Below, piece after piece: positions 1 to 32,989 of a stretch of DNA of 33,325 nt. The notes under the pieces were generated by a model. The model was not told where the DNA came from and made no database searches. It saw nothing but the letters and a program-made list of their open reading frames with translations. Position 1 is the stretch's first letter, and each line of letters starts with the position of its first letter. Origin of the DNA: Actinomycetota bacterium (lineage in GTDB: Bacteria > Actinomycetota > Humimicrobiia > Humimicrobiales > Humimicrobiaceae); assembly GCA_023487035.1 (NCBI GenBank), contig JAMDEN010000101.1, positions 1-33,325 of the forward strand, read 5' to 3'. Made by a program: the position numbers and the translations under genes.

Positions 1-645
1 AAAAATTCGGGTGGAGCTTCAAGATGTATTGCTGATATAGGCTCTCATTGGATGGATACAGTTCAGGAAGTCCTTGGCGATAAGATAGTGGAGGTATGTT
101 CTGATTTAGCAATAATATATAAAATTAGAAAAAAACCAATAACTCAGGTTGAAACGTTTGCTACAACCACAGATATTGAATATGAAGAAATAAAAGTAGA
201 TACAGAAGATTATGGTGCTGTAATGTTTAAAATGAAAAGCGGTATTCACGGTGTTTTTTATGTGTCACAAGTCAGTGCAGGTAGAAAATGTTTTTTTAAT
301 TTTGAGATAGACGGAACTAAAAGTTCAATTTATTGGAACCAGGAAATTGCTGATTGGATGTGGATTGGCTATAAAGATAAATATAACCAGCAAGTTATAA
401 GAAATCCTAATCTTATGGCGGAAGAGAATAGGCAATATACATTACTTGCAGCTGGACATCCTGAAGGTTGGAATGATGCAGAAAGAAATAATATTTATAA
501 TTTTTATAAGTATATATTGGATGGTAAAAAGTTAGGAAAGGATCCCAGCGATTTTGCTACTTTTGATGAGGCTCATTACATTATGAAGCTTACGGAAGCA
601 ATTTTAGAAAGTAATAAAACAAAAAGATGGATTAAACTTGAGTGA
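1..645 (+). CDS. Gfo/Idh/MocA family oxidoreductase, C-terminal part (5' truncated by window edge)
   Basis: Reading frame open from base 1 (KNSGGASRCIADIGSHWMDTVQEVLG...), with GSHWMD and the C-terminal 'NDAERNNIYNFYKYILDGK' region typical of MocA-type dehydrogenases; stop at 643-645. Confidence 0.85.
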   Translation, partial: KNSGGASRCIADIGSHWMDTVQEVLGDKIVEVCSDLAIIYKIRKKPITQVETFATTTDIEYEEIKVDTEDYGAVMFKMKSGIHGVFYVSQVSAGRKCFFNFEIDGTKSSIYWNQEIADWMWIGYKDKYNQQVIRNPNLMAEENRQYTLLAAGHPEGWNDAERNNIYNFYKYILDGKKLGKDPSDFATFDEAHYIMKLTEAILESNKTKRWIKLE

Positions 646-847
646 TTGCAGTAGTCTTGATTATTAGTATTTTCTTGAATTATTTAAGAGTTTTAGTTTT
701 TAGTAAATGTAGAGATTAGTCCAATCATAAAAGTGATAAGAAATTTTTGGAAAGAAAATGATAAGTCAAAGTTTAAATTTTCAGCAGGTTTATGTGATGT
801 TCATGAAGGAGTAAATACTTTTGGACATAGGATCTTGTTACAGATTA

Positions 848-875
848 CACTGGCTAAAAAATTATTTAGCCAGTG
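848..875 (+). terminator. Putative hairpin/terminator
   Basis: Perfect 11-bp inverted repeat CACTGGCTAAA-aaatta-TTTAGCCAGTG; no clean T-run follows. Confidence 0.5.
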
Positions 876-1088
876 CATTTAGTCAATATATTTAGTTAAT
901 ATTTAAATAAAATAAATATTTTTTAATATAAATTTTTATTACATATTTTTTGGTAAATAAAAAGATTTGACATATTTATTATTTATGATGATTTATACTT
1001 ATGCAAATTTTTTAGATATTAAAATATATCTCATGATCTTATGCTAATTATTTAAAATAAATAATAATTTTAATTAGAGGAAAAATAA

Positions 1089-2522
1089 ATGAAACTTAAT
1101 CAAACTGAGGTTCTGTCAAATAAGGAAATAATAAAAATAGATGAAACCTCAAAAGAAATCCTTGAAGAAACAGGCGTAAAAGTACTTAGTGAAAATGCAC
1201 TAGATATTTATAAGCAGGCTGGTTGTAAAGTAGATTATGACAAAAAAATAGTTAAAGTACCTTCTAAATTAGTTGAAAGATGCATAAAATCTTGCCCTTC
1301 AGAATATAAATTATTTAGCCGAGATAAAGATAGTTATTTAGATTTTGGTAAAAATGTTGGTTATTGTGCTTCTGGACATAATGCAATTTATATGCTTGAT
1401 TTAGAAACATTGGAAAGAAGACCTGCAACAAAAGAAGAAGTTGGAAATTTTGCAAAAATTTCGGATGCACTTGACAATATTCACATAGTTGGGGTGGAGG
1501 CTATGCCTCAGGATGTTCATCCAAAATCTTCAATTCTTCATGCAATAGATGCAGTAGTAAATAATACTAATAAACATATTTTTTATTCTCCTGAAAATGT
1601 TGATGAAACAAGAGCTTCACTTGAAATGTTAAAAATTATAAATGATGGTGAAAGGCTTCAGAAAACGCCAATTGCTATTTGCCAGCTTTCGCCAATAAGT
1701 CCGCTTACATGGTCTAAAGGTACAATTGAAGCAGTAACAGAAGTATCAAAAGCCGGGCTTCCTTTATGTTTTTTACCTCAGCCTTATTGTGGTGTAACAT
1801 CTCCAATAACTTTAGCGGGTACATTAGTTACAAATAATGCAGAAACCTTATCTGGTCTGGTATTAACTCAATTAATAAATGAAGGAACACCAGTAATATA
1901 CGGCGCAGCCTGGACTACTTTTGAAATGAATAAAGGAACAGTGCTTATAGGAACTCCTGAAAGATGTCTTCTCTCTGTTGGAGGATCTCAGATTGCGAAA
2001 TATTATAAAATTCCTTCTCATTGTATTGCTTTTGATACAGATTCAAATATTTATGATGAACAAAATGGTTTTGAAAAAATTTTTAATCTTATTGCTACCC
2101 TTCAATCTGGAATAAATTTAGTAGTTAATGCAGGTATGTTTTCTACAGGCATGACTGTTAGTTATGAACAACTTATTGTTGATGCTGAAATGGCAAGTTT
2201 CGTTTATAGATATTTAAAAGGCATAGAAGTCAATAAAGATACCTTGTCTAAAGAAGTTATTAAAAAAGTGGGACAGCATGAAAGTTATATGATGGAACCT
2301 CAAACAATGAAATATATAAGGCTTGGTGAGCATGCACCATATAAGGTTTCAAACAGGGATGTATATGAAAACTGGAAAAGCAAAGGAAAACCTTCAATTA
2401 CAGATAATGCAAGAAAATTAGCATTGGAAATCATAAAAGATCATAACCCAAAACCATTGACGAAAATAAAACAGGGAAAGTTAAGAGAAATAATTGCAGA
2501 ATTTGAATCTCAATTTAAATAA
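1089..2522 (+). CDS. Trimethylamine methyltransferase (MttB) superfamily protein, non-pyrrolysine type
   Basis: 477 aa, MttB-like motifs (ATKEEVGNFAKISDALDNIH, CQLSPISPLTW, QPYCGVTSPITLAGTLV, MVSYEQLIVDAEMASFVYR-like segment); continuous frame with no in-frame TAG; RBS-like 'agagga' upstream. Confidence 0.9.
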   Translation: MKLNQTEVLSNKEIIKIDETSKEILEETGVKVLSENALDIYKQAGCKVDYDKKIVKVPSKLVERCIKSCPSEYKLFSRDKDSYLDFGKNVGYCASGHNAIYMLDLETLERRPATKEEVGNFAKISDALDNIHIVGVEAMPQDVHPKSSILHAIDAVVNNTNKHIFYSPENVDETRASLEMLKIINDGERLQKTPIAICQLSPISPLTWSKGTIEAVTEVSKAGLPLCFLPQPYCGVTSPITLAGTLVTNNAETLSGLVLTQLINEGTPVIYGAAWTTFEMNKGTVLIGTPERCLLSVGGSQIAKYYKIPSHCIAFDTDSNIYDEQNGFEKIFNLIATLQSGINLVVNAGMFSTGMTVSYEQLIVDAEMASFVYRYLKGIEVNKDTLSKEVIKKVGQHESYMMEPQTMKYIRLGEHAPYKVSNRDVYENWKSKGKPSITDNARKLALEIIKDHNPKPLTKIKQGKLREIIAEFESQFK

Positions 2523-2910
2523 AATATAAATAATAAAAGAAATTTATTATAAATAACTATAACTTTTCAAATTAAATTTAAAAAGTATTTTAATTTATAA
2601 TTAATTGTTAATTACTTCTTATGATAATATATAAATGTTATAGATTATAGAAGTAATCAGATGTAAGGTAATCAAATATTAATAAGTTTTTTATTATTTA
2701 CATTATATTTAAAAGACCTGTTTTTAGTTTAGAATTTAGCATTTATAGATAAAATACTGAAAATTTTGAATTTGTAAATAAATATTTATAAAAATAGTTT
2801 TTTATATTTTGGTAAAAAATTATTTGAATCTTAAAAATTAATGTAATTTTTTTATAATTTTACAGTTTTTAAGTATATTTTTGCCTATAATAACAGAAAT
2901 AGGAGATATA

Positions 2911-4431
2911 ATGGCGGATACAAATGAGATTAAAACAATAAAACCAAAAGTAGGTTTTATATCTTTAACAGAGCCTCCAAGAGCATTATCTTTTGCTGAT
3001 GAATTAAATAAATATATTTTAATTAAGCATAAAGAATTCAAAGATTTTTTAATTAAAAATGATATTGATGTTGTAGATGCCTCAGAACTGGCTCAAAGAC
3101 CTGACAATCCAAAAAGTATCATTGGATTTTATTCAAGCACAGACATACAAAAAGCAATAGATGTTTTTAACATTAATCATATAGAAGCCATAATCATTGG
3201 TTGCTGGCATTGGACAGACCCGATGTTTGTTGTTGAAATAGCAAGATCAGCTAATAAGCCTATTCTTTTATATGGTGAAGAAGATCCTGCCTGGGCTGCA
3301 CCCTGTCTTATTACTGCTGGAGGTGCATCACTTTGGGATAATTCACCTAACAGATTTGCGCAAGCTCATGAAAGAATTTATGGTAATAAGGAATCTGTTA
3401 TTCAATGGATTAGAGGAGTAACTGTACTGGAAAAACTAAGAAGAGGAAAACTTTTACTATGGGGTGGTTCCTATGCTTTAAGGATGGAATTTCTGCAGGA
3501 TGATTATCCTTATTTAAAATCTTTTTTAATTGGAGATATTTTACTTGAAGACCAATATACATTAATTAAATATGCTGAGCAGGTTTCAAGCTCAAGAATA
3601 GAAAGTTTTGTAAACTGGCTTCGAAATGGTGGAACTAAATTTAATTTTGATAATTTAAAATTTACTCCTGAAGTATTAAACAAACAGGTAGCACTGTATC
3701 TTGGGGCAAAAGATAGAATTAAAGAGCTTGGAAGTGACATTATCGGGGTATCAGTAAAATGTTTTAACGACATGTCTGATGTTTATGGTATTGTACCTTG
3801 CTTTCTTCCTGCATTTCTTCCCTATATGTATGATAGCGAAGGTGAAAGAAATCAGATACCGACAGTTTGTGAGGGCGATACTAAAGCCTTAATTTCATCC
3901 ATATTACTTTCATATTTTGCAGGCGGAATTCCAGCACTTTTTGGAGATGTTACAACTATTAACAAGGATTATTATCTGATATCAAACTGTGGAGCTTCAT
4001 CAATATATTATTCATGTAAATCCTGTAAAGTTAATGAAGTTTTAAGTAACCTTACTATAGAAGCAAACTCTGAAGGAGTCAGTGGGGCAGCAGTAGGCTA
4101 TGATGGTTTTGAAGCTGATATGACTGTCATAAGATTACTTCGTTCAAAGGGTAAATATTTTATGCACTATGGTCTTGGCACTTCAATTCCAATGACTGAT
4201 CAGAGGAAAGATGCCATATATTTTGGAAGGACAAATCCGCATACAGCTATAAAGATGAATGTGGATAAGGATTTATTTATAAATGCTCTTGGCGCCAATC
4301 ATCTGATTGCAATACCTGGAAATTATTTAAAGGAAACTGAATATTTTTGCAGACAGGTAGGAATAGAGCTATATAGAATTGATTCGGATGAGGGCATTAA
4401 AAGCTGGCTTAGCAGGGTATATTATCTGTAA
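2911..4431 (+). CDS. L-fucose/L-arabinose isomerase-like protein
   Basis: ~506 aa; resembles the FucI/AraA-like isomerase superfamily (IIGCWHWTDPMFVVEIARSANKPILLYGEEDPAWAAP; CEGDTKALISSILLSYFAGG). ATG at 2911 with 'aggag' at 2901 preferred over the TTG at 2881 in the ORF track. Confidence 0.75.
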   Translation: MADTNEIKTIKPKVGFISLTEPPRALSFADELNKYILIKHKEFKDFLIKNDIDVVDASELAQRPDNPKSIIGFYSSTDIQKAIDVFNINHIEAIIIGCWHWTDPMFVVEIARSANKPILLYGEEDPAWAAPCLITAGGASLWDNSPNRFAQAHERIYGNKESVIQWIRGVTVLEKLRRGKLLLWGGSYALRMEFLQDDYPYLKSFLIGDILLEDQYTLIKYAEQVSSSRIESFVNWLRNGGTKFNFDNLKFTPEVLNKQVALYLGAKDRIKELGSDIIGVSVKCFNDMSDVYGIVPCFLPAFLPYMYDSEGERNQIPTVCEGDTKALISSILLSYFAGGIPALFGDVTTINKDYYLISNCGASSIYYSCKSCKVNEVLSNLTIEANSEGVSGAAVGYDGFEADMTVIRLLRSKGKYFMHYGLGTSIPMTDQRKDAIYFGRTNPHTAIKMNVDKDLFINALGANHLIAIPGNYLKETEYFCRQVGIELYRIDSDEGIKSWLSRVYYL

Positions 4432-4837
4432 GTTAATATTTTAAGATAAGTATAAGGGATAATATTTTTTTTACTCTCTTATATATTGTCTATAATTGAA
4501 TATTATAGGGTTATTTAAAAATATAATAATATTTTTTATGAGGGTTTTATTTTACTAAGTTTTGATTATTTTTTTAAAATTATTAATTTATAAGCTGGAA
4601 TGAGTAAAACTAATGCTAAAATAATGTTAATATCAAAGTAATTATTGATAATTATGCATTTATTGATTAAATAATATAATCTTTTGCTCTTTATTCACTT
4701 TATATAAACATTATTTGCATTAATTACAATTATTAATGTGATGCAAATAAAAGTAATTATTTATTTTATATATACGTTATTTAAAAACGTAATTAAAACT
4801 TTATAAATAAGTATTTGAATAAGAAGGTGAAATTAAG

Positions 4838-5878
4838 ATGCCATTAGCAGATATAAGACCTTATCTTGAGGATTCAAGAAATAAAAAATATGCGCTTGGT
4901 TGTTTTAATGTTTTTGATACTGAAACACTTGAAGGTGTTATTGAGGCAGCAGTAAATAAGAGAACCCCTATAGTATGTGCAATTTATGAGCCTCAGTTTA
5001 AATATAGTGATCTTGAATCTTTTACAGATTTAATAAAAAATATTGCTTCAAAAACAGACATTCCGGTTATATTACATCTTGATCATGCAACAGAGTTAGC
5101 TTCCATAGTCAGAGCAATTAAGTGCGGGTTTACTGCTGTTATGTTTGACGGGCCTGTTGGAGCAAGTTTTGAAGAGAAGGTGGAAAAAACTAAAAAAGCA
5201 GTAGAAATTGCTCATCTTGCAGGAGCAACAGTTGAAGCTGAACTTGGTTACATTACCCGTGTTGGTGTTGATGAAAAAGCAAGTCAGGAAAATATAGCTG
5301 ATCCCGGACTGGCAAAAGAATTTGTTGAGAAAACTGGAATAGATATTTTAGCTCCAGCAATAGGTTCAGTTCATGGGATGGGCGAGCAAAAAGCAACCTT
5401 AAATCTTGAATTATTAAAACAAATTGCAAACAGCACAAATTGTTATTTATCTTTACATGGGGGTAGTGGAGTAGATGACACTATTGTTCAACAGGCTATA
5501 GATCTTGGAATTAATAAAGCATCGGTTTATACAAGATTGTCAAATAGAGCAATAGAAAGAGTAAGACAAAGTTTGACAACAGGCAAAGGAGATATTTCTG
5601 CAGTATTAAATGAAGTTCGTAATGGATTCAGAGAAGTTGTGGAAGACAGGCTGGAAGTTTTAAGAAGTGTTAATATATGTAATCCAGGACAGGGACAGGA
5701 TATCTGTCATTATTGCACTTCTGATAAATTTTGTGTTTCAAAAGTATCACGACCATTTTCTTCAGATAATCAGCCTTACATAAAGTCTTCTGTAATAGGA
5801 AATGTAACTGATAGAACTTATGAAGAAATTATTAATAATGTCAGCAGTATTATTGCTGATTATATTAAAAATAAGTAA
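4838..5878 (+). CDS. Class II (zinc) ketose-bisphosphate aldolase, FBA/GatY-type, with Cys-rich C-terminal extension
   Basis: GCFNVFDTETLEGVIEAA, HLDHATE, AEAELGYI-like segment, SVHGMGE, LSLHGGSGV (His ligands conserved); RBS 'aaggtga' upstream. Confidence 0.92.
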   Translation: MPLADIRPYLEDSRNKKYALGCFNVFDTETLEGVIEAAVNKRTPIVCAIYEPQFKYSDLESFTDLIKNIASKTDIPVILHLDHATELASIVRAIKCGFTAVMFDGPVGASFEEKVEKTKKAVEIAHLAGATVEAELGYITRVGVDEKASQENIADPGLAKEFVEKTGIDILAPAIGSVHGMGEQKATLNLELLKQIANSTNCYLSLHGGSGVDDTIVQQAIDLGINKASVYTRLSNRAIERVRQSLTTGKGDISAVLNEVRNGFREVVEDRLEVLRSVNICNPGQGQDICHYCTSDKFCVSKVSRPFSSDNQPYIKSSVIGNVTDRTYEEIINNVSSIIADYIKNK

Positions 5879-21290: not shown

Positions 21291-23188
21291 GTTTGCCCGA
21301 CATGGGCAGTAACTCGGCGGTGAAAGTCCGCTATGAGCTTGGTAGTGGGAATCATTAGCCAACAGCAAGGGTGTCCACCGTGAGGGGGAATCTGAAGGAA
21401 GCTTAGAGGCAAAATCCCGCACCGACGAACAGAAACTGCATATAAGGCATATGTGGAACGGACAAGTTTGCTTATCAAAACAAAGTCCAACACTACCCGA
21501 ATTCCACAGTGTAAATGCAGCGGTGACATGGGATGAAAGTTGCTGCTCTTAACCGGGGAGGTCTGGCAGATACTCTTGCGGATAAGCAGGAAACCCATAC
21601 AGTGATGTACGGGCTTTAACTGCCAGAAGTCAGCAGAAGTCATATTACCATGTAAATGGGAAGGACTGAACAATAGGAGGTTTTCAAAGTTTGAAGTATA
21701 CGAAGAAATATAACAAAAGCAGACAACTCCACAAAAGCGGAGGCTGCCTGTGCAAGGATAAAGCGGAACTTGAAAGTAGCACAGGAGCGCATAGTATTTC
21801 TTCCATGTGCCAAAGCAAAGAAAACGATGTAAGTGAGTATACAGATGGATTGCTTGAGAAAATCCTTGACAGGCATAACTTAAATCTTGCATACAAAAGA
21901 GTTATGCAAAACAAAGGAAGCCATGGAGTTGATAAAATGAGCACAGAAGAGCTTCTGTCATTTTTAAAACAAAATGGAGATAAAATCAAACAGTCTATAC
22001 TTGACGGGACATACCGTCCCAGTTCTGTCAGAAGGGTTGAAATACCTAAACCTGATGGGAAAGTAAGGCTACTTGGAATACCTACAGTGCTTGACAGGCT
22101 AATACAGCAGGCAATAGCCCAAGTACTTACCCCTATATTTGAAAAGCAGTTCTGTGTTTCAAGCTACGGGTATAGACCGGGCAGGAATGCAAAGCAGGCA
22201 ATAGCCAAATGCAAAGATTATATTGAAGAAGGCTATACATGGGTTGTTGACATTGACATTGCAAACTATTTCGACAGCGTAAATCATGACAAACTGATAA
22301 GGCTTATATCAAAAACTATAAAAGACGGTAGGATAATATCCCTTATTAGAAAATATCTTAATTCAGGAGTCATGATAAATGGTGTTGTAATAGAAACACA
22401 AGAAGGAACGCCGCAAGGGGGAAATTTATCACCCCTGCTTGCTAACATTATGCTAAATGAGCTTGACAGAGAACTTGAAGACAGGGGCCTTAAGTTCTGC
22501 CGCTATGCTGATGATATAAACATTTATGTCAAAAGCAGAAAAGCAGCAGATAGGGTTACGGGCAGTATCACAAAATTTATTGAGGATAAACTAAAACTTA
22601 AAGTCAATAAAGACAAAAGCAGTGTTGATAGACCATGGAAGCCCAGGTTCTTAGGGTTCTCTTTCTACCATAGGAAAGGTGGAGTAGGGATACGAGTACA
22701 TCATAAAACTGTTGTAAAATTTAAACAGAAGCTAAAGAAGATAACAGGAAGAAGCAATGCCATGAGTATGGTTTACAGGATGCTGAAGTTAAAGCAGTTA
22801 ATAACAGGATGGGTAAACTACTTTGGTATTGCAGATATGAAAGGACTTGCAGAATCATTGGATGAGTGGTTAAGAAGAAGGATAAGAATGTGCTTCTGGA
22901 AGCAATGGAAGAAAATCAAAACCAGACATGACAATCTTGTCAGACTTGGTATTGAAAACTCCAAAGCTTGGGAATTTGCAAACACAAGAAAAGGCTACTG
23001 GTGTATAGCCAATAGCCCGATTCTTTCGACAACATTTACCAATGAATACCTGAAGAATTTAGGGTTTCAATCAATAGCTGAAAGATACTCATTAGCGCAT
23101 TAATTCTATTGAACCGCCGTATGCCGAACGGCTTGTACGGTGGTGTGAGAGGTCGGCTGCTCAAATAATGAGTAGCCTCCTACTCGAT
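21291..23188 (+). mobile_element. Group II intron (likely class IIC) with ORF in domain IV
   Basis: 5' end GTTTGCCCGACATGGGC...; RT/maturase ORF; 34-nt domain V candidate at 23111-23144 (gaaCCGCCGTatGCCgaacGGCttgtACGGTGGt) and domain VI with 3' end ...CCTACTCGAT. Boundaries inferred by eye. Confidence 0.92.
21691..23103 (+). CDS. ltrA: Group II intron-encoded reverse transcriptase/maturase, no C-terminal HNH endonuclease apparent
   Basis: RT motifs (IPKPDGKVRLLGIPTVLDRLIQQAIAQVLTPIFE, YGYRPGRNAKQAI, DIANYFDSV, GTPQGGNLSPLLANIMLNELD, CRYADD), maturase domain X (RMLKLKQLITGWVNYFG), WLRRRIRMCFWKQWKK; TTG start with 'aggagg' RBS. Confidence 0.96.
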   Translation: MKYTKKYNKSRQLHKSGGCLCKDKAELESSTGAHSISSMCQSKENDVSEYTDGLLEKILDRHNLNLAYKRVMQNKGSHGVDKMSTEELLSFLKQNGDKIKQSILDGTYRPSSVRRVEIPKPDGKVRLLGIPTVLDRLIQQAIAQVLTPIFEKQFCVSSYGYRPGRNAKQAIAKCKDYIEEGYTWVVDIDIANYFDSVNHDKLIRLISKTIKDGRIISLIRKYLNSGVMINGVVIETQEGTPQGGNLSPLLANIMLNELDRELEDRGLKFCRYADDINIYVKSRKAADRVTGSITKFIEDKLKLKVNKDKSSVDRPWKPRFLGFSFYHRKGGVGIRVHHKTVVKFKQKLKKITGRSNAMSMVYRMLKLKQLITGWVNYFGIADMKGLAESLDEWLRRRIRMCFWKQWKKIKTRHDNLVRLGIENSKAWEFANTRKGYWCIANSPILSTTFTNEYLKNLGFQSIAERYSLAH

Positions 23189-30300: not shown

Positions 30301-30439
30301 TGGTTTTTATAGGAAAGATTAATTCTTAATTAATTATGGAAGACATTCTATAAAAAGAAAAGCTAAAAATATTAAATTGTCAAAGAACAATTAAAATTAA
30401 AAATATTTCTAAACATTCGCTCTTTGAAAACTAAATAAG

Positions 30440-31684
30440 TTAAGCAGCAACAGCATAAGGAGCTTGCTGTATAAATACTCTTGAAGGATCGTAGTATGAT
30501 TTGTATTTTAACATTGAATACATCATTCTTATTATTTTTACAGCTATTTTAATCAAAGCTTTTTTAGCAGGCATTCCGGCTGATACCATATCATGGTAAT
30601 ATTTTCCAAGATGACTATTGTGTTTTACAGCAGCAACACTTGAAAGATATAGCATATATCTTAAGTCTTTAGGACCTGCTTTTACAATTGAGGGGTTTTT
30701 CTTTTTGTACTTTCCTGATTCAAATATTTTTGGGTAAAACCCAATAAAAGAGACAAGTTTGTCTGAATTTGGAAAGCGACCTACATCTCCCACAGCAGCA
30801 ATAAAGGCAGCAATTGTACCAATACCCGCACCTTTAATTGAATTTAGGATGTCAAAGTTTAGCCTGTTGCCATCTTTGGGATCATCAGGATTTAAGATTG
30901 ATTTAATCTCAAGCTCTATATCTTTTACTTTGGCTGACAGTGAAGCTATCTCTTCAATCTGCATAGATATTGATATTCCTCTTGACTTATGAGCTTTACC
31001 GGAATAAAAACTATCCCTGGCAGCAGCTATTAACTCTTTTGCTTTATCAGCTGAGTAGTTGCATCCCTGGTATCTTCTAAATATCTTAACCAGCTTTCCA
31101 ACAGTAGCATCTTTTGCCATATGGCAGGAAGTCGGGTATTTTGATATAATTTCCATAGATACCTTTGAGAAGGGATAAGAGATTATCTTTGTATATTCAG
31201 GAAATACAAGATAAAGAAGTGCAAGAACACTTTTCTTTAAATCTTTTACCCTTCTCTCAAAAGAATGCTTTATTCTTACAAGTTCTCTAAGCTCAAGAAT
31301 TGACTCATCTGATATATAAAGATCATCAAACTTTCCACCTCTTACAAGATTAGCAATAGCGGCAGCATCAAGGGAATCGGTTTTAATCTTAGATCCCAGT
31401 GCCTGGCGATACTTCTTTACCTGATATGGGTTTAGCAGAATACAGGATATGTCCTTTTGTTTTAGGTATGAATACATATTTTCCCAGTAATTGGAGGATA
31501 TCTCCATACCGACTACAATTTGGTCTTTTCTGCAGCTAAATAGTTTTGAGAGTAGTTTTTCGATTCCTTCCTTGGAATTTGTGATGTTAAAGGGACTAAA
31601 AATTTCATTACCGTCTTCATCAATTGCTACTACCCTGGAAGTTCCTTTAGCAAGATCTAATCCAGGATATACTTTCTGGCTCAT
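30440..31684 (-). CDS. IS110-family transposase
   Basis: 414 aa: N-terminal DEDD domain (YPGLDLAKGTSRVVAIDEDGNE; GMEISSNYWENMYSYLKQK; KTDSLDAAAIANLVRGG) and C-terminal Tnp_20-like domain (LNSIKGAGIGTIAAFIAAVGDVGRFPNSDKLVSFIGFYP). Confidence 0.95.
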   Translation of the reverse strand: MSQKVYPGLDLAKGTSRVVAIDEDGNEIFSPFNITNSKEGIEKLLSKLFSCRKDQIVVGMEISSNYWENMYSYLKQKDISCILLNPYQVKKYRQALGSKIKTDSLDAAAIANLVRGGKFDDLYISDESILELRELVRIKHSFERRVKDLKKSVLALLYLVFPEYTKIISYPFSKVSMEIISKYPTSCHMAKDATVGKLVKIFRRYQGCNYSADKAKELIAAARDSFYSGKAHKSRGISISMQIEEIASLSAKVKDIELEIKSILNPDDPKDGNRLNFDILNSIKGAGIGTIAAFIAAVGDVGRFPNSDKLVSFIGFYPKIFESGKYKKKNPSIVKAGPKDLRYMLYLSSVAAVKHNSHLGKYYHDMVSAGMPAKKALIKIAVKIIRMMYSMLKYKSYYDPSRVFIQQAPYAVAA

Positions 31685-31699
31685 GGTTTTAATCCTTTC

Positions 31700-31885
31700 T
31701 GTTATAATTTATTAATTGCCAAGCAGTTCCTGCTTATTTACTGACTTATTACAAAGCCTCGTTATAATTGGTACTTAAGCAATTTAAGTCCAAATCATTC
31801 TGATAATTGTTTTTTATAGTCAGTAGCAAGAAAGCAAAAGTCTTTCTAAATTGGTCTGTCAATTTAAGACAGCCCAAAGGAGGGT
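31700..31885 (-). ncRNA. Candidate IS110 bridge-RNA region upstream of the transposase
   Basis: Several stem-loops in the 5' non-coding end: AAGCAG-GAA-CTGCTT (31721-31735), long-range ACTGACT/AGTCAGT (31740-31746 with 31818-31824) enclosing TTGG-ACTTAA-attgc-TTAAGT-a-CCAA (31768-31793), AGAAAG/CTTTCT (31829-31847), CTGTC/GACAG (~31856-31874). Confidence 0.4.
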
Positions 31886-31957
31886 ATATTTGTCTTTCTG
31901 CTTAGCTTATTTATTTATATAAATTGATTTTACAATAAAGAGTATTATTAATAAATA

Positions 31958-32989
31958 ATGATTATCTTATTATACGAGAATATTCTTATGGATAAAAATT
32001 TTTATAAAGTAGTTTTAACTGAATACGAAAATAAACCTACTGATATAGAGGAAAAAATTTTAAGCAAAATCAATGTCGATTTTAGATATTTAAATACATT
32101 TGATGAAAGTATTATTATCCAAGAAGCCAGAGATGCTGATGCATTAATATGTACTTGGGCTAAAATTAACTCAACTGTCATTAGTGAAATGAGAAAATGT
32201 AGAATAATTGTAAGGTGCGGCATAGGTGTTGACAATATTGATATTGAAGCTGCATCCAAAGCAGGAATTTGGGTAGCAAATCTTCCGGATTATGCAATTT
32301 TAGAAGTAACAAACCATACGATAGCTTTAATTTTAGCATTAAACAGAAAATTATTTTTATATAATTTCGGAATAAGAAATGGATTATGGGGTTTTAGTGT
32401 CGGAGTTCCTATTAAAAGAATTGATGGACAGACACTGGGACTGATAGGATTTGGCAATATTGCTCAAAATGTTTCAAAAAAATGTATTGGATTAGGACTA
32501 AAAGTCATATCATTTGACCCAAATATAGATGAAGATTATATGATTAGCTGCGGGGTTGTTAAGGTTGATAGCCTATACTATTTGTTGAAAAATTCTGATT
32601 TTGTATCATTGCATGTACCATTGAATGATTCTACTAGGGGAATAATAGGAGAAAAGGAATTAAAAATGATGAAACCTGATGCGTATCTGATAAATACTGG
32701 AAGAGGCGGCTTAATTAATGAACCTTTATTAATAAAAGCAATAGAAGAAAAATGGATTGCAGGAGCAGGACTTGATGTTTATTTAAACGAGCCAATAAGT
32801 AAGGATAATAAACTGTTAAAATTAGAAAATGTTATTTTAACGCCACACGTTGCTTATTATTCAGAAGAAGCTATACTGGATCAGCGAAGAATGGCTGCAG
32901 AAACGGTACTGGGAGTGTTAATGGGAGGCACTCCAAAATCTTTTGTTAATAAAAATTTGCTAATAAAATATGGAAAAAATATAAATTAG
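31958..32989 (+). CDS. D-isomer-specific 2-hydroxyacid dehydrogenase (SerA/CtBP-like)
   Basis: IIVRCGIGVDNIDIEAASKAGIWVANLPDYAILEVTNHTIALILAL, LGLIGFGNIAQNV, LINTGRGGLINEPLL, AGAGLDVYLNEP, LTPHVAYYSEEA. Start could also be ATG at 31988. Confidence 0.92.
   Translation: MIILLYENILMDKNFYKVVLTEYENKPTDIEEKILSKINVDFRYLNTFDESIIIQEARDADALICTWAKINSTVISEMRKCRIIVRCGIGVDNIDIEAASKAGIWVANLPDYAILEVTNHTIALILALNRKLFLYNFGIRNGLWGFSVGVPIKRIDGQTLGLIGFGNIAQNVSKKCIGLGLKVISFDPNIDEDYMISCGVVKVDSLYYLLKNSDFVSLHVPLNDSTRGIIGEKELKMMKPDAYLINTGRGGLINEPLLIKAIEEKWIAGAGLDVYLNEPISKDNKLLKLENVILTPHVAYYSEEAILDQRRMAAETVLGVLMGGTPKSFVNKNLLIKYGKNIN

What the first reader, a model, noticed from the sequence alone, without database searches (positions are those of the whole stretch)
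31690..31900. Structured 5' leader of an IS110 element: candidate bridge RNA
Seen: on the transposase strand, the ~200 nt upstream of the IS110 transposase has no ORF but a series of stem-loops: CTGTC-ttaaatt-GACAG, AGAAAG-acttttg-CTTTCT, a long-range ACTGACT...AGTCAGT pairing that encloses TTGG-ACTTAA-attgc-TTAAGT-a-CCAA within a large, mostly unpaired loop, then AAGCAG-GAA-CTGCTT. Established: IS110-group elements encode a bridge RNA in the non-coding end upstream of the transposase, with internal loops that base-pair with donor and target DNA. Inference: the 31747-31817 interior loop is a candidate recognition loop. This would be a bridge recombinase/RNA pair from an AT-rich bacterium.
Basis: partly seen in the sequence, partly recalled or inferred. 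Interest (0 to 1): 0.72.

Follow-up and report, generated by a model that had tools for sequence, protein, structure and literature searches.

The report
A bridge RNA of an IS110 transposon
The stretch just upstream of this jumping gene encodes a folded guide ("bridge") RNA of the recently discovered IS110 type; its closest relatives aim theirs either at ribosome-binding sites of host genes or at the ends of another transposon, so it is a good natural example of a known system rather than a new one.

Summary
The finding is real. Window 30341-31978 (minus strand) is a complete ~1.64 kb IS110 element. It has CT cores at both ends, an intact 414-aa DEDD transposase with IS621's catalytic residues, and a 292-nt non-coding left end. 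About 190 nt of that end (31718-31907) folds well (z -4.45). In ten homologous copies from one AT-rich actinomycetotal family the fold is kept in 97% of cells, with 12 pairs showing compensatory changes.
The loops behave as bridge-RNA guides. Its guides match the insertion flanks across copies (permutation p 4e-4 left, ~0.01 right). One guide class matches the end of IS91-like transposons; the other is anti-Shine-Dalgarno.
A helix closing the whole RNA uses AAGCAG and CTGCTT instead. The window copy's own flank does not match its own guide (2/7), which is unexplained. New member of a known kind; expression and activity untested.

The parts
30341..31978 (-). whole IS110 element, core to core (left core CT 31978-31977; right core CT 30342-30341)
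   Evidence: homologous copies in unrelated flanks share sequence exactly between these points; coordinates; a paralogous empty site of a sister copy shows one CT and no duplication
31966..31976 (-). right-donor side (RD) of the left end, CGTATAATAAG, containing a TATAAT -10-like box
   Evidence: invariant in intact left ends
31718..31907 (-). structured core of the bridge RNA
   Evidence: fold z -4.45; covariation; covariance model finds it only at this element or its remnants in 40 class genomes
31898..31906 (-). 5' strand of closing helix P1 (GCTAAGCAG)
   Evidence: 90/90 cells paired, 3 pairs with compensatory change
31718..31726 (-). 3' strand of closing helix P1 (CTGCTTGGC)
   Evidence: 90/90 cells paired, 3 pairs with compensatory change
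31830..31898 (-). target-binding loop: base stem GAAAGaCAA/TTTGCTTTC with apical stem 31851-31877
   Evidence: helices 3 and 4
31878..31886 (-). left target guide with core, TACCCTC-CT (anti-Shine-Dalgarno type)
   Evidence: position-matched guide/flank test over 11 copies, p = 4e-4; matches this copy's own flank at only 2/7
31840..31847 (-). right target guide ending in AG (AGAAAG), followed by handshake-guide-like AC
   Evidence: 6 copies, 10/12 matches in the first 2 nt, p = 0.017; first 4 nt p = 0.008
31740..31824 (-). donor-binding loop: base stem ACTGACT/AGTCAGT, apical stem 31768-31793
   Evidence: base-stem length 69 vs shuffle mean 50.7, max 64 in 2000; apical helix with 5 compensatory pairs
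31796..31802 (-). left donor guide (CAGAATG; AGAATG matches LD ATAGAATGT)
   Evidence: loop-restricted shuffle p = 0.005; AGAATG invariant in 10 copies
31758..31768 (-). right donor guide ATTAT(A)ACGAG, reverse complement of CTCGTATAAT with a one-base bulge
   Evidence: loop-restricted shuffle p = 0.011; TAACGAG invariant in 10 copies
30440..31684 (-). IS110 transposase, 414 aa; D10, E61, D103, D106, S323 align with IS621 D11, E60, D102, D105, S241
30343..30352 (-). left-donor side (LD) of the right end, TATAGAATGT
   Evidence: invariant in the intact right ends compared

Best explanation
The leader is the bridge RNA of an IS110-group insertion sequence. By analogy with IS621, the excised circle joins RE to LE and forms the donor ATAGAATGT-CT-CGTATAAT. 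The RNA's donor loop pairs with both strands of that junction, and its target loop pairs with both strands of a chromosomal site around a CT core. The DEDD/serine transposase then exchanges strands at CT without a target duplication. Within this family the target loop occurs in two programmes: class A (GAAYTTG-CT) aims at a repeated 25-mer at the end of IS91-like elements, and class B (..CCTC-CT) aims at Shine-Dalgarno sequences just upstream of start codons, in antisense orientation. The window copy carries a class B guide. Shown here: element boundaries, conserved structure, donor complementarity, guide/flank co-variation across copies. Inferred: transcription, RNP formation, recombination.
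For: Full IS110 transposase with IS621 catalytic residues. Non-coding LE 292 nt against RE 97 nt. Ends constant, flanks unrelated. Sister copy L100 and its empty paralogue L122 share the target with a single CT and are otherwise identical across the junction. Covariation: 97.0% of cells paired against 29-47% for slid versions; 12 pairs and 25 cells with double changes, 0/500 shuffles for both. Left target guide against flank 58/77 matches, permutation mean 40.7, p = 4e-4, p = 1e-4 without the window copy. Right target guide p 0.008-0.017. Donor guides p 0.005 and 0.011 within the loop. Anatomy matches the published IS621 description: one-U linker after the left target guide, AU linker after the left donor guide, discontiguous right donor guide, RTG ending in the core complement, then handshake bases; here AC is the reverse complement of donor positions 6-7 GT (for IS621; here).
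Against: The window copy's own left flank (GAATATT) matches its own guide (TACCCTC) at only 2/7 positions. Within each guide class alone the permutation test is not significant (p 0.1-0.2), so the signal is mainly between classes, and the copies are related. Donor sequences do not vary, so donor-guide covariation could not be tested. No empty site for the window copy was found. No expression data. The junction -35 box is weak.
Confidence: 0.93

Rival explanations
1. The leader is only a structured 5' untranslated region or attenuator controlling transposase expression, with no guide function.
For: It directly precedes the start codon and is strongly folded.
Against: It predicts neither loop strands complementary to the element's own ends nor loop strands that change with the insertion flank.
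Confidence: 0.04
2. The target guides look matched only because related copies sit in related sites (shared ancestry), not because the RNA selects the site.
For: Copies are related; within-class tests are not significant; the window copy mismatches.
Against: Flanks beyond the target are unrelated. L037 and L100 have nearly identical leaders but differ by C/T in the guide, and their targets differ at the same position in the same way. The class A target exists as many empty repeats.
Confidence: 0.03
3. For the window copy specifically: it did not insert with its present guide. Either its target loop changed afterwards, or its flank was mutated or replaced by recombination with an older insertion. 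(This is an add-on to the best explanation, not an alternative to it.)
For: Guide/flank 2/7 match; the flank fits class A guides at up to 5/7, while the window's left target guide is the same as that of sister L034, which does match its own target at 6/7.
Against: Off-target insertion by the present guide is not excluded; the site is still 12 nt from a start codon, like other class B sites.
Confidence: 0.5

Closest known systems
IS621 (and ISCro4) bridge RNA-recombinase systems (PMC11208160, PMC11208158; PDB 8wt6, 9t56)
   Same: Transposase homologous over RuvC and Tnp domains with all catalytic residues; RNA in the left end; target loop then donor loop; CT core; linkers and handshake bases in the same places; discontiguous right donor guide.
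   Different: A 9-bp helix closes both loops, whereas the text on IS621 describes a 5' stem-loop followed by two loops; one-base instead of two-base bulge in the right donor guide; transposase only distantly related.
IS900 of Mycobacterium avium subsp. paratuberculosis (IS110 family)
   Same: Reported target motif CATGNNNNNNTCTCCTT (PMC8141618) has the same form as class B sites: an antisense start codon followed by an antisense ribosome-binding site. That reading of the motif is mine.
   Different: No sequence comparison with IS900 was made here; in this family the anti-SD stretch lies on the left-target side and includes the core.
IS4321/IS5075 (IS1111 group) that target Tn21-family ends (cited in PMC11187229)
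   Same: Targets the end of another transposon, as class A copies do.
   Different: IS1111 group has its RNA downstream and subterminal inverted repeats; class A here targets IS91-like (Y2_Tnp) ends and the RNA is upstream.
seekRNA of ISEc21 (IS110 family; PMC11187229)
   Same: Target-selecting RNA from the non-coding region of an IS110 element.
   Different: No direct sequence comparison made.

Membership tests
IS110-group bridge RNA system | DEDD RuvC domain plus Tnp domain with catalytic serine | tested here: met
   PF01548 and PF02371; NF033542 above cutoff; D10, E61, D103, D106, S323 aligned to IS621
IS110-group bridge RNA system | long non-coding end upstream of the transposase holds the RNA (IS1111: downstream) | tested here: met
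   LE 292 nt, RE 97 nt; covarying structure in LE
IS110-group bridge RNA system | conserved RNA structure with two internal loops | tested here: met
IS110-group bridge RNA system | donor loop strands complementary to the RE-LE junction | tested here: met
   p 0.005 and 0.011 in-loop, 0.014 jointly over the whole leader; invariant, so no covariation test
IS110-group bridge RNA system | target loop strands complementary to the insertion site | tested here: met
   met for the family; not met by the window copy's own left flank (2/7)
IS110-group bridge RNA system | core dinucleotide shared by both ends, no target duplication | tested here: met
   L100 against empty paralogue L122
IS110-group bridge RNA system | promoter reconstituted at the RE-LE junction | tested here: inconclusive
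   perfect TATAAT next to the core; candidate -35 TTTTCT at 17 nt is weak
IS110-group bridge RNA system | RNA expressed, bound by transposase, required for recombination | not testable with these tools
   needs experiments
IS1111 group | RNA downstream of the transposase (long right end) | tested here: not met
   RE is 97 nt
Rfam family | match at gathering score | tested here: not met
   none over the leader

The most novel reading that the evidence does not exclude
A single bridge RNA family that naturally switches between two opportunistic targets: an anti-Shine-Dalgarno guide that lets the element land just upstream of almost any gene, and a guide for the ends of IS91-like transposons. Left-end remnants kept in front of host genes in many genera may have been adopted as leader or promoter sequence.
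Probability: 0.3. Interest if true: 0.55.

Novelty: new member of a known kind. Interest (0 to 1): 0.42.

Why it matters
It adds an AT-rich, distant branch of bridge recombinases with full anatomy (donor, both target guides, core, empty site), which is useful for mining programmable recombinases. It also gives natural evidence of retargeting between a universal host signal (the ribosome-binding site) and another transposon's end, which makes guide evolution testable.

Tried and rejected
Viral contigs: no relative. Rfam: no bridge-RNA-like family matches. Empty site for the window copy: the neighbouring dehydrogenase gene has no DNA match in 39 other class genomes. Widening to the phylum gave no further transposases at E <= 1e-70 or RNA copies at E <= 1e-3. 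Covariance-model search of 40 class genomes added no further full guide/target pairs. Reading class A targets as a coding motif was rejected: no long ORF spans the site, and it is the end of a repeat. Right end and target of L037 could not be recovered: its transposase is truncated.

Full report
What is there. The minus-strand ORF 31684-30440 is a complete IS110-family transposase (PF01548 E 2.7e-34, PF02371 E 1.7e-19, NF033542 above its cutoff). Its residues D10, E61, D103, D106 and S323 align with the IS621 residues D11, E60, D102, D105 and S241. Named relatives are MAGs of AT-rich Actinomycetota. Close transposase relatives at E <= 1e-60 occur in 6 of 40 genomes of the class, all in one family, and no further ones appear at E <= 1e-70 in 398 genomes of the phylum.

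Boundaries. Aligning homologous copies that lie in unrelated flanks gives a sharp left end CT-CGTATAATAAG and right end TATAGAATGT-CT, i.e. window 31978 to 30341. The sister copy L100 sits in a repeated sequence. The empty paralogue L122 in the same genome (G004) has the same sequence across the junction with a single CT, and no duplication. The non-coding ends are 292 nt upstream and 97 nt downstream of the gene, the IS110 and not the IS1111 arrangement as described in PMC11208160.

Structure. The leader 31718-31911(-) folds at -50.7 kcal/mol, z = -4.45. In ten copies (alignment A1) the consensus fold has 44 pairs; 97.0% of cells are paired, against 29-47% when partners are slid. 12 pairs and 25 cells show changes on both sides, against 5.6 and 7.6 in shuffles (0/500 for both). 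The layout is a closing helix (GCTAAGCAG/CTGCTTGGC, 90/90 cells), a target-binding loop, then a donor-binding loop whose base stem changes sequence but not pairing in most copies. A covariance model of this RNA finds it in 9 of 40 class genomes, twelve places, each at this element or a remnant of it.

Donor guides. The strand 3' of it carries ATTAT(A)ACGAG, the reverse complement of CTCGTATAAT with one extra base. Shuffles restricted to the loop strands give p = 0.005 and 0.011; over the whole leader the joint p is 0.014. The donor does not vary among copies, so covariation could not be tested. Published IS621 anatomy also has a discontiguous right donor guide, a single-U linker after the left target guide, an AU linker after the left donor guide, and handshake bases after the right target guide that pair with donor positions 6-7. 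Here those bases are AC, the reverse complement of donor GT, in all ten copies.

Target guides. Seven-nucleotide left guides against left flanks: 58/77 matches over 11 copies, permutation mean 40.7, p = 4e-4, and p = 1e-4 without the window copy. Within classes alone the test is not significant (p 0.1-0.2). Right guides over six copies: 10/12 in two positions, p = 0.017; 15/24 in four, p = 0.008. L037 and L100 have nearly identical leaders; their left guides differ by C/T, and their targets differ the same way.

Two target classes. Class A (GAAYTTG-CT) lies in a 25-bp motif found in 20 of 40 class genomes, up to 18 times per genome, with no hit for the reversed control. In several loci it is the end of a longer repeat whose ORF matches Y2_Tnp (IS91-like). 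Class B guides (..CCTC-CT) match antisense Shine-Dalgarno sequence. Among 19 non-class-A left ends, many of them old remnants, 13 have an antisense ATG 6-16 nt from the core against a background of 17% (p about 9e-7). That background is the whole window, not start-proximal DNA, so the p-value is indicative. IS900 has the comparable motif CATGNNNNNNTCTCCTT (PMC8141618), so this type of target is not new.

The window copy. Its guide TACCCTC is class B and equals that of sister L034, which fits its own target at 6/7. The window's own flank GAATATT fits at only 2/7 and fits class A guides at up to 5/7. No empty site is available. Either the target loop or the flank changed after insertion, or the insertion was off-target. 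This is unexplained.

Promoter. TATAAT lies directly beside the core in the left end; the candidate -35 TTTTCT at 17 nt in the RE-LE junction is weak. Expression is inferred only.

Verdict. It is a new member of a known kind, with a closing helix that may distinguish it from IS621. Interest is moderate, from the two natural target programmes.

Noticed in passing
L020 (G000:C106), bases 1-5000: A second, distant IS110-family element (29% identity) in exact tandem dimer, period 1645 bp, identical over 1647 bp, with a longer right non-coding end.
   Followed up: partly
L057, L059, L043, L044, L093, L096, L047, L051 and others: Left-end remnants (often the first ~90 nt) of this element stand alone in front of genes in many genomes of the class, with no transposase-related sequence detected downstream; possible adopted leaders or plain decay.
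   Followed up: partly
window 21374-23103: Group II intron: Rfam D1-D4 matches at 21374-21666 followed by a reverse transcriptase-like ORF at 21691-23103.
   Followed up: no
L110, L112, L115, L122, L125: A repeated element end GATCCARAAGCAARTTCTTATAAAT, in several loci attached to an IS91-like Y2_Tnp gene, is the target of class A copies.
   Followed up: partly
L034 left flank: The copy in G004:C144 sits just upstream of what looks by eye like the translation initiation factor IF-1 gene, apparently without an ATG start; no family search confirmed it.
   Followed up: no
L016 (G000:C161:3023-6516): A decayed second copy of the same element in this genome, interrupted by about 1.6 kb of other sequence.
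   Followed up: partly
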